A stretch of DNA of 64,000 bases from Mycolicibacterium neworleansense (GTDB taxonomy: Bacteria; Actinomycetota; Actinomycetes; Mycobacteriales; Mycobacteriaceae), in contig NZ_CWKH01000001.1 of the NCBI RefSeq assembly GCF_001245615.1, forward strand, positions 2,232,001 through 2,296,000, written 5' to 3'. The first letter of the stretch is position 1. Every line of letters starts with the position of its first letter. Below are positions 47,590 through 49,104 of the stretch, piece by piece. A model generated the notes under the pieces. It was not told the DNA's origin. It saw nothing but the letters and a program-made list of their open reading frames with translations, and did not search any database. A program made the translations under genes and the position numbers.

Positions 47590-49017
47590 TCAGCACGCCT
47601 CAACTCCGAACCACGTCGGCAGGTGCTCCGTCAGGTCTGCCTGATCGTCCCCCACCCACGCCACGTGGCCATCCGGCCGTAGCAGTACCGCGGGCACATC
47701 CAACTCGTCGCTGGTGTCGACGACATGGTCGACGCGGTCGCCCCAACCGCCCACCGAGAGTCGACCGGTTTGGTCGAGCAGCAGTCCACGGCCGGCGTGC
47801 ATCAATCCGTAGAGGCGACCACGTGTGAGCTCGATGTCCCGCAACCGTCTGCCGACCAGGTCATGCGCGCCGCCGAAGTCGTAACGGATCGCGATAGCGA
47901 TGATCTTCTCGGTCAGATGCCGGCTCACCCCCGGGAAGTCCATAAGCTCGGCAACCAGCCGCCGCACCGCCTGAGCGCCAGGTTCCAGCGACATCAGTTC
48001 CATCTGTGCCCGGGTGCTGTCCAGCACGTCGGCGGCCACCGGACGGCGTTCGTCTCCGTAGCTGTCCAGCAGATCCGTCGGAGCCCAGCCGTTCACCGAA
48101 GCCGCCAGTTTCCAGCCGAGGTTGAAGGCGTCCTGGACACCGAGATTGAGTCCCTGCCCGCCGGCCGGCGGATGAACATGCGCGGCGTCACCTGCCAGCA
48201 GCGCCCGCCCGCTTCGGTACCGCTCGGCCAGCCGGGTACCGTCCCCGAATCGAGACAGCCAGCGCGGGGAATGCACGCCGAAGTCGGTGCCGGCGGTGAT
48301 CAACAACTGACGCTTGAACTCCTCCAGTGTCGGTGGCCTGACCCGGTCTTCGGCCACCGCATCGGCCGGCACGATGACGCGGTACACGCCGTCGCCCAAC
48401 GGCATGGCCCCGAACCGCAGTTGGGTCTTGCGGACCTCGGCCATCACGGCGTCGAGTGTTTCCCGATCCACGTCAAGCTCAACCTCGCCCAACAGCGTCT
48501 CAAGCCTCGCCGGTTCCCCGGGAAAATCGATACCAAGCAGCTTGCGGACCGTGCTGCGGCCACCGTCGCAGCCGACGAGGTAGCGCGATCTCAACCACGA
48601 CCCATCAGCCAGTTCGACGGTGACGCCGTCGTCGTTCTGGCTCACTCCGGTCACCTCACATCCGCGGCGGATCTCGGCGCCGAGGTTCTCAGCGTGCTCG
48701 GTCAGCAGACGTTCGGTGATCGTCTGCGGGATCCCGAGGACGTAGGCGTGCGCGGTGTCGAGTCCTTCGGGCTGCGGTTTGGCGATGCCGGCGAAGAACC
48801 CTCCGATCGGGTGCCGCTGCCCGTGCTCGAGGAACCGCGACAGTAGACCGCGCTGGTCCATGATCTCGATACTGCGTGCGTGCAGCCCCAGCCCACGGAC
48901 CACCGTGGACGGCTCTGGCTCCTTCTCCAGCACGACGACGTTCACACCGTGCAGACGTAGTTCGGCGGCGAGCATCGATCCGGTCGGTCCCGCGCCGGCA
49001 ATGATCACGTCAAACAT
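47590..49017 (-). CDS. rox: Rifamycin monooxygenase (Rox-like flavoprotein)
   Basis: Class A FAD monooxygenase of 475 aa. The start MFDVIIAGAGPTGSMLAAEL carries GxGxxG (residues 8-13). VVRGLGLHARSIEIMDQRGLLSRFLEHG, FFAGIAKPQPEGLDTAHAYVLGIPQTITERLLTEHA and VGCDGGRSTVRKLLGIDFPGEPA closely follow the Streptomyces/Nocardia rifampicin monooxygenases as I remember them. The second FAD motif is LLAGDAAHVHPPAGGQGLNLGVQDAFNLGWKLA. These enzymes hydroxylate rifamycins with NADPH and O2, which opens the ansa ring and inactivates the drug. Start ATG at 49017. The matching RAE upstream supports the assignment strongly. Confidence 0.87.
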   Translation of the reverse strand: MFDVIIAGAGPTGSMLAAELRLHGVNVVVLEKEPEPSTVVRGLGLHARSIEIMDQRGLLSRFLEHGQRHPIGGFFAGIAKPQPEGLDTAHAYVLGIPQTITERLLTEHAENLGAEIRRGCEVTGVSQNDDGVTVELADGSWLRSRYLVGCDGGRSTVRKLLGIDFPGEPARLETLLGEVELDVDRETLDAVMAEVRKTQLRFGAMPLGDGVYRVIVPADAVAEDRVRPPTLEEFKRQLLITAGTDFGVHSPRWLSRFGDGTRLAERYRSGRALLAGDAAHVHPPAGGQGLNLGVQDAFNLGWKLAASVNGWAPTDLLDSYGDERRPVAADVLDSTRAQMELMSLEPGAQAVRRLVAELMDFPGVSRHLTEKIIAIAIRYDFGGAHDLVGRRLRDIELTRGRLYGLMHAGRGLLLDQTGRLSVGGWGDRVDHVVDTSDELDVPAVLLRPDGHVAWVGDDQADLTEHLPTWFGVEAC

Positions 49018-49069
49018 GAATCCCCTGTCTCCGCTGCTCAGCGCTGCGGGAGGAGATTGTGCACCACCT

Positions 49070-49104
49070 CCGGGGTCTTGCCGCAAGACCCCGGGTGCGC
49101 TATA
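49070..49104 (-). promoter_or_regulatory. Rifamycin-associated element (RAE) and -10 region of rox
   Basis: A perfect 11-bp inverted repeat (49094-49084 and 49080-49070) with a CGG loop. On the rox strand it reads CCGGGGTCTTG, CGG, CAAGACCCCGG. The core CTTGCGGCAAG flanked by G and C runs matches the RAE known upstream of rifamycin-inactivating genes in actinomycetes. A TATAGC -10-like box (49104-49099) lies 4 nt before it, so the RAE falls at the transcription start, and the rox ATG is 52 nt downstream. It could also terminate the upstream LLM transcript. Confidence 0.78.

What the first reader, a model, noticed from the sequence alone, without database searches (positions are those of the whole stretch)
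47590..49104. Rifamycin monooxygenase gene with a canonical rifamycin-associated element (RAE)
The protein follows the Rox/RIFMO sequence over its whole visible length, and the region upstream contains a perfect inverted repeat whose core CTTGCGGCAAG, flanked by G and C runs, is the RAE found before rifamycin-inactivating genes in actinomycetes. Two independent signals agree. The RAE begins 4 nt after a TATAGC box, so it sits at the transcription start. A drug-inducible rifamycin-inactivation gene in a Mycobacterium, embedded in a catabolic region, would add an intrinsic resistance route beside the better-known Arr ADP-ribosyltransferase.
Basis: partly seen in the sequence, partly recalled or inferred. 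Interest (0 to 1): 0.88.

Follow-up and report, generated by a model that had tools for sequence, protein, structure and literature searches.

The report
Rifampicin-destroying enzyme gene with alarm promoter
This is an ordinary, intact-looking mycobacterial gene for an enzyme that destroys rifampicin, but its known drug-alarm element proves to be a mirror-symmetric two-way promoter whose better side points away from the resistance gene, which gives a concrete, testable idea for how such switches work.

Summary
Confirmed. Window 47590-49017 (minus) encodes an intact Rox/RIFMO-type rifamycin monooxygenase: 892 bits against a curated cut-off of 800, inside the clade of the characterised N. farcinica and S. 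venezuelae enzymes, departing at one of 197 near-invariant columns. A perfect 25-bp inverted repeat at 49070-49094 is a canonical rifamycin-associated element (RAE). The genome has three exact extended RAEs: before rox, arr and helR. The locus is syntenic in a mycobacterial clade; M. smegmatis MSMEG_2252, a published Rox homologue apparently at the same locus, is among its most rifampicin-induced genes. The gene is a new member of a known kind.

In 126 RAE promoters (123 distinct) the core lies exactly 15 nt from a consensus -10 (TAnnnT) on the strand facing away from the gene (126 of 126) and 15 nt from a weak -10 (mostly CAnAAT) facing it (125 of 126). In a class-wide sample chosen blind to both -10s, 29 of 30 sites have the pair, and all 27 recognised genes lie on the weak side. 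The RAE looks like a shared palindromic -35 of two back-to-back promoters. How rifampicin switches it (polymerase alone, or a regulator) stays open.

The parts
47590..49017 (-). rox: rifamycin (rifampin) monooxygenase, 475 aa, FAD_binding_3 + Rng_hyd_C
   Evidence: NF033145 892.4 bits, cut-off 800; Pfam; 5kow/5vqb; tree; 196 of 197 near-invariant columns kept
49070..49094 (.). RAE: perfect 25-bp inverted repeat (12-bp arms, one central base); the 19-bp RAE is 49073-49091
   Evidence: sequence; pattern searches
49077..49087 (-). RAE core CTTGCGGCAAG; holds TTGCGG (minus 49086-49081) and TTGCCG (plus 49078-49083) as overlapping -35-like hexamers
   Evidence: 19-nt spacers to both -10s read from the sequence
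49056..49061 (-). sense -10 CACAAT, 15 nt from the core, facing rox (equivalent of published helD promoter 2)
   Evidence: xAnnnT at this spacing in 125 of 126 RAE rows; PMC10719064 section 9
49103..49108 (+). antisense -10 TATGTT, 15 nt from the core, facing away from rox
   Evidence: TAnnnT at this spacing in 126 of 126 RAE rows, in 27 of 27 RAEs of the m2 sample, on one side of 29 of 30 sites in the blind class sample
49109..49116 (+). conserved GAAAGTGG after the antisense -10, predicted start region of an antisense RNA
   Evidence: family profiles: conserved in rox, m2 and arr, weaker in helR; role inferred
49144..50202 (-). F420-dependent LLM oxidoreductase, TIGR03857 (F420_MSMEG_2249), upstream neighbour, same strand as rox
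   Evidence: 492.6 bits, cut-off 218.4; synteny
45999..47495 (+). carboxyltransferase-like gene (TIGR01117 303.5 bits, below its cut-off), downstream neighbour facing rox
44803..45867 (-). F420-dependent LLM oxidoreductase, TIGR03617 (F420_MSMEG_2256)
   Evidence: 514 bits, cut-off 278.15; synteny
43571..44830 (-). cytochrome P450 (all P450 models below cut-off, best 163.8 bits)

Best explanation
The gene encodes an FAD-dependent rifamycin monooxygenase (Rox) that oxidises rifamycins and so breaks them down. Sub-inhibitory rifamycin switches it on through the RAE promoter, together with arr (drug ADP-ribosylation) and helR (removal of drug-stalled RNA polymerase), which have the only other exact extended RAEs in the genome. 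Anatomy shown here by sequence: the RAE palindrome lies as overlapping -35 region between two back-to-back -10s, a consensus one (TAnnnT) facing away and a weaker one (CAnAAT) facing the gene, each with a 19-nt spacer. Inferred: RNA polymerase can use only one side at a time, the outward side normally wins, and the drug shifts use to the gene side.
For: Rox. Three exact RAEs, at rox, arr (NF000318 265 bits, cut-off 250) and a helR/HelD gene. Synteny of rox with its two neighbours in 9 of 20 congeneric loci fetched, three of which are also the named records L006, L007 and L073. Induction of MSMEG_2252, helD and arr by rifampicin in M. smegmatis (PMC6529629, passages); MSMEG_2252 protein raised, value 1.966 in the paper's table (PMC8525676). 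Two-sided promoter: 126 of 126 rows (123 distinct) antisense TAnnnT and 125 of 126 sense xAnnnT at exactly 15 nt; antisense TAnnnT at other offsets 7 of 4914; 4 of 4 non-RAE look-alikes lack it; in a class-wide sample blind to both -10s, 29 of 30 sites have the pair and 27 of 27 recognised genes lie on the weak side. At the three loci of this genome the upstream gene (TIGR03857, Mut7-C, DUF3516) has the same direction as the resistance gene, so no divergent gene there needs the outward promoter. TANNNT promoters give more RNA than VANNNT in M. smegmatis (PMC6448022, passage).
Against: No expression or enzyme data for this strain were found. ADP-ribosylation is reported as dominant in mycobacteria; extra MSMEG_2252 did not restore tolerance in a sigB mutant. 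That MSMEG_2252 is the syntenic orthologue rests on its published label and on the MSMEG numbers in the neighbours' family names, not on its sequence. No mapped antisense start was seen. In B. subtilis, shortening the distance so that the two polymerases hinder each other's binding abolished induction (PMC12802891), which speaks against a polymerase-only switch with overlapping promoters. The fixed C-N-G centre (26 of 30 sites chosen by TTGNNNCAA; the 4 others look like chance) and the GGG/CC flanks ask for more than a -35 and favour a bound regulator.
Confidence: 0.87

Rival explanations
1. The RAE is mainly the operator of an unknown dimeric regulator that responds to rifamycin or to stalled RNA polymerase. 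It overlaps the -35 region and activates or unblocks the sense promoter; the outward -10 is a by-product of symmetry or lets the same regulator act both ways. (Not exclusive with the two-sided geometry.)
For: Palindrome conserved beyond TTG/CAA: of 30 sites chosen only by TTGNNNCAA and the inward -10, 26 are TTGCNGCAAG and the other 4 lack the outward -10. The literature proposes such a factor (PMC10719064, PMC12802891). Flank pairs do not co-vary, as expected for DNA recognition rather than an RNA hairpin (flank 1: 33 of 126 paired, 30.1 expected).
Against: The papers seen name no such protein. A plain operator does not explain why the outward hexamer keeps exactly T, A and T in four gene families at a fixed distance.
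Confidence: 0.5
2. The conserved upstream element is the -10 of a sense promoter (P1), read CANNNT, so the gene has two tandem sense promoters, as described for M. smegmatis helD.
For: AnnnT can be read on either strand; two sense starts are reported for helD (PMC10719064).
Against: The invariant A at position -16 is explained only by the antisense reading; a TTG at the matching sense -35 is found in 0 of 126 at spacers 16-19; the review puts the P1 start about 20 bp upstream of the RAE, which is upstream of this element.
Confidence: 0.15
3. The RAE acts as an RNA hairpin at the 5' end of a transcript or as an extruded cruciform.
For: Perfect inverted repeat in this window.
Against: The pair next to the core is complementary in only 33 of 126, about what composition predicts; the predicted sense start lies downstream of the RAE.
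Confidence: 0.03
4. The gene is a catabolic phenol-type hydroxylase of the surrounding cluster, not a Rox.
For: Neighbours are catabolic-type oxidoreductases.
Against: NF033145 over cut-off, phenol 2-monooxygenase model only 127 bits against a cut-off of 560; Rox clade 99/100; RAE shared with arr and helR.
Confidence: 0.02

Closest known systems
Rox / RIFMO rifamycin monooxygenases (N. farcinica 5kow, S. venezuelae 5vqb)
   Same: full-length similarity, same family model, same clade, near-invariant columns kept
   Different: mycobacterial branch with a conserved locus beside F420-dependent oxidoreductases; D128N at one near-invariant column; activity untested
Rifamycin-associated element (RAE) of actinobacteria
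   Same: 19-bp palindrome upstream of rox, arr, helR and rgt-type genes
   Different: no difference in this locus; the symmetric outward-facing TAnnnT was not mentioned in the RAE passages read
B. subtilis helD/pps dual-promoter rifampicin alarm (PMC12802891; sections 37, 48-50 and passages read)
   Same: stronger antisense plus weaker sense promoter before rifampicin-response genes; 19-bp spacers at the antisense promoters
   Different: there the promoters converge and need room between them; here they are back to back and overlap at the -35
Bidirectional promoters of E. coli (PMC12825309, abstract and outline seen)
   Same: symmetry lets RNA polymerase bind in two orientations, one excluding the other
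   Different: here the shared part is a long conserved -35 palindrome and the bias of direction is fixed relative to the gene; that paper found competition only when one direction is strongly active

Membership tests
Rox (NF033145) | score over curated cut-off | tested here: met
   892.4 vs 800 bits, residues 2-472
Rox (NF033145) | groups with characterised Rox proteins | tested here: met
   48-row clade with 5kow and 5vqb, support 99/100; 12 m2 rows and 2 own paralogues outside; midpoint root, long-branch warning for the paralogues
Rox (NF033145) | conserved residues intact | tested here: met
   departs at 1 of 197 columns conserved at 95% or more in 107 Rox rows, three of them duplicates
Rox (NF033145) | oxidises rifamycins with NADPH and O2 | not testable with these tools
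   needs purified enzyme
RAE promoter | 19-bp palindrome upstream of a rifamycin-response gene | tested here: met
   49073-49091
RAE promoter | overlaps -35 of a sense promoter | tested here: met
   by sequence only: CACAAT 15 nt from the core, as in 125 of 126 rows
RAE promoter | induction by rifamycin | not testable with these tools
   published for MSMEG_2252, helD and arr in M. smegmatis
B. subtilis-type dual-promoter alarm | two convergent promoters with space between them | tested here: not met
   the two -10s face away from each other
B. subtilis-type dual-promoter alarm | antisense promoter stronger than sense | tested here: inconclusive
   by sequence only: TAnnnT vs CAnAAT; strength not measured

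The most novel reading that the evidence does not exclude
The RAE is not, or not only, an operator: it is a palindromic -35 shared by two mutually exclusive, divergent promoters, and rifamycin induction of rox, arr, helR, rgt and related genes works by turning RNA polymerase from the strong outward promoter to the weak gene-facing one. It would be the actinobacterial, back-to-back counterpart of the Bacillus dual-promoter alarm.
Probability: 0.35. Interest if true: 0.82.

Novelty: new member of a known kind. Interest (0 to 1): 0.58.

Why it matters
How actinobacteria sense rifamycins through the RAE is called unresolved in a 2026 paper (PMC12802891). A fixed promoter geometry shared by unrelated genes, with a predicted antisense start, gives a direct test in laboratory strains. 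The same geometry also works as a filter for finding rifamycin-response genes: here it pointed to a second, widespread monooxygenase family (PRK06834, named only 'hypothetical protein' in NCBIfam) and to a DrrA-type ABC transporter.

Tried and rejected
Rejected: the start at TTG 49086 (inside the RAE; homologues align from ATG 49017). TATAGC as the sense -10: no T at position 6, and the full TATAGC is not conserved in arr or helR. RNA hairpin or cruciform: no co-variation. Phenol-hydroxylase identity. Two of the five core palindromes in the genome (L003, L004) are not RAEs: no -10 at the right place in the printed flank and not among the matches. The promoter/terminator consensus scan gave nothing: its 16-18 nt spacer rule excludes 19-nt promoters. 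A MerR-type promoter (19-bp spacer) was considered and set aside, from recalled knowledge, because the palindrome covers the -35 instead of the spacer.

Limits of the counts: one search kept 73 of 80 named rox loci (exact core within 350 nt and enough flank) and 23 of 26 congeneric rox loci, the window's own included; the other 3 have CTTGTGGCAAG. Three loci are in it twice (123 distinct). The one row without a sense xAnnnT at 15 nt (L078) has it one base further; one row (L060) has TAACCT there instead of CANAAT. The 28 arr, m2, helR and rgt promoters taken were selected by a pattern that fixes the sense -10 (not the antisense one); arr_L002 and hel_L005 were not. Samples overlap in genomes and must not be added up. 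One search printed 26 of 30; L203 was misread there because its locus is clipped, and one search shows its RAE, so 27 of 30; L182 has a one-base variant, L181 and L209 have none. One search used the 30 loci given of 36 genomes with a match (98 searched); 4 of the 30 are congeneric, among them the window's own rox. Its one site without the -10 pair (L251) has no recognised gene. The helR-like genes there are 36-44% identical to the window genome's and were not scored against the HelR model. In the tree, 20 of 80 named Rox, 25 congeneric Rox and 12 of 30 m2 rows were used.

Full report
What is there. The minus-strand ORF 47590-49017 gives a 475-residue protein. It scores 892.4 bits against NCBIfam NF033145 (rifampin monooxygenase, equivalog, cut-off 800), 708.5 against the Iri model (cut-off 950, not reached) and 127.2 against a phenol 2-monooxygenase model (cut-off 560). 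Pfam shows FAD_binding_3 and Rng_hyd_C. The best solved relatives are N. farcinica RIFMO (5kow) and S. venezuelae Rox (5vqb), aligned over residues 1-472. Of 197 columns conserved at 95% or more among 107 other Rox rows it departs at one, D128N. In a 62-row tree it lies in a 48-row Rox clade (99/100) with both characterised enzymes; its nearest rows are mycobacterial, among them M. houstonense (midpoint root, and the two paralogues of this genome sit on long branches). That species is reported with a rifampicin MIC99 of 25 ug/mL (PMC13246000, passage); the passages seen do not link this to rox.

The RAE and its partners. The inverted repeat is perfect over 25 bp (49070-49094). So one control element appears to govern drug destruction, drug modification and target rescue. 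Of 396 congeneric genomes, 26 carry a Rox over the cut-off and 231 have at least one exact extended RAE, with 0 for the reversed pattern in the rows printed. One RAE from each of 30 of these genomes led to arr 10, m2 10, helR 6, rox 2 and rgt-like 2.

Locus history. Twenty congeneric loci were fetched: 19 of the 25 other genomes over the Rox cut-off, and G344. Two more (L175, L180) keep rox near TIGR03857. L179, on a short contig, has a 69% match to TIGR03617 next to rox. Eight (L161, L163, L165, L169, L174, L176-L178) show none of these neighbours. The family names of the two oxidoreductases carry the M. smegmatis numbers MSMEG_2249 and MSMEG_2256, which bracket MSMEG_2252. That gene is described as a Rox homologue and as one of the most highly rifampicin-induced genes, with helD (MSMEG_2174) and arr (MSMEG_1221) (PMC6529629, passages); its protein is also raised under sub-inhibitory drug (PMC8525676, one table row). 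That MSMEG_2252 is the syntenic orthologue is inferred from these labels; its sequence was not examined. Against a large role: extra MSMEG_2252 did not restore tolerance in the sigB mutant, and ADP-ribosylation is reported as dominant in mycobacteria.

The symmetric promoter. A review places the RAE over the -35 region of helD promoter 2 (PMC10719064 section 9). Aligning 126 RAE promoters (73 named rox, 23 congeneric rox, 11 arr, 10 m2, 7 helR, 2 rgt-like; 123 distinct) on the core showed two hexamers at exactly 15 nt from it: TAnnnT on the strand facing away in 126 of 126, and xAnnnT on the gene-facing strand in 125 of 126, mostly CAGAAT (61), CACAAT (47) or CAAAAT (13). The middle bases of the outward hexamer vary (21 different hexamers) while T, A and T do not. 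At other offsets from 5 to 44 the outward TAnnnT occurs in 7 of 4914 places. The bases conserved at 90% or more in each of rox, arr, helR and m2 are only A-21, T-17, A-16 (the outward -10), GGG, the core, CC, and GCA.AAT (the inward -10). Reading the outward element as a sense -10 leaves A-16 unexplained and finds no TTG at the matching -35 (0 of 126).

Controls. Thirty best-scoring PRK06834 loci not chosen by RAE: 27 have an exact RAE core and all 27 have both -10s. Thirty sites, one per genome, chosen only by TTGNNNCAA and the inward -10: 25 of 25 canonical RAEs and one near-canonical have the outward -10, while 4 of 4 others lack it. Thirty sites, one per genome, chosen class-wide by GGGNCTTGCNGCAAGNCC, which is blind to both -10s and to direction: 29 have one TAnnnT and one weak [CG]AnnnT; a reference gene was recognised at 27 (helR-like 13, rox 7, rgt 3, m2 2, arr 2), each time on the weak side; two more (L253, L255) have an ABC transporter gene there, and L251 has neither the pair nor a recognised gene. 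At the three RAEs of the window genome the upstream gene has the same direction as the resistance gene (TIGR03857 at rox, Mut7-C at arr, DUF3516 at helR), so no divergent gene accounts for the outward -10 there; this was not tested at the other loci.

How it may work. Shown by sequence: geometry, symmetry, and the direction of the better -10. Supported by literature: TANNNT promoters are more active than VANNNT in M. smegmatis (PMC6448022, passage); the Bacillus helD alarm uses a strong antisense and a weak sense promoter, with 19-bp spacers at the antisense ones (PMC12802891 sections 48-50). Both RAE promoters have 19-nt spacers if TTGCNG is taken as the -35. Inferred: the two promoters exclude each other, the outward one normally wins, and the drug reverses this. 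Against a polymerase-only version: shortening the Bacillus arrangement until the polymerases hinder each other abolished induction, and RAE conservation exceeds what a -35 needs, so a regulator is at least as likely. Bidirectional promoters with such exclusion are known in E. coli, though there competition appeared only when one direction was strongly active (PMC12825309, abstract).

What is new. The gene and its RAE are not new in kind. The mirror arrangement was not mentioned in the RAE passages I read (the review has no occurrence of 'antisense' or 'divergent'), and the listings of literature searches showed no title or abstract opening about it. The original RAE, HelR and Rox papers (cited in the papers read) were not read: one was tried and is not held, the others were not tried. 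I therefore cannot say that it is unpublished.

Noticed in passing
L129, L130, L135-L137, L143, L145, L148, L156, L157; L181-L210: A second FAD monooxygenase family (NCBIfam PRK06834, 'hypothetical protein', 847 bits for L129, cut-off 625; 42% identical to the window Rox) is RAE-linked in mycobacteria: 10 of 30 sampled RAEs, 27 of 30 of its best-scoring loci, present over cut-off in 40 of 118 genomes but not in the window's own. Candidate second rifamycin monooxygenase, separate from the Rox clade.
   Followed up: partly
L128, L146, L245, L250, L254: RAE before glycosyltransferase genes whose best family is rifamycin glycosyltransferase Rgt (L146 513 bits, L128 461 bits, cut-off 800 not reached; the other three by tblastn to L146 only); in L128 a helR-like gene follows downstream.
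   Followed up: partly
L253, L255: RAE with both -10s before a DrrA-type drug-exporter ABC transporter gene in two genomes of one family (L253 TIGR01188 352.6 bits, cut-off 312.45; L255 read by eye).
   Followed up: partly
L124, L180 (G344): One congeneric genome has a rox that looks interrupted (two pieces) and still lies behind an exact extended RAE; described only.
   Followed up: no
L109, L111, L118, L065: RAE variant CTTGTGGCAAG before rox: the inner base changes while TTG and CAA stay.
   Followed up: no
window 49109-49116 and equivalents: GARAGTGG just after the outward -10 is conserved in rox, arr and m2; it may set the start of an antisense RNA.
   Followed up: no
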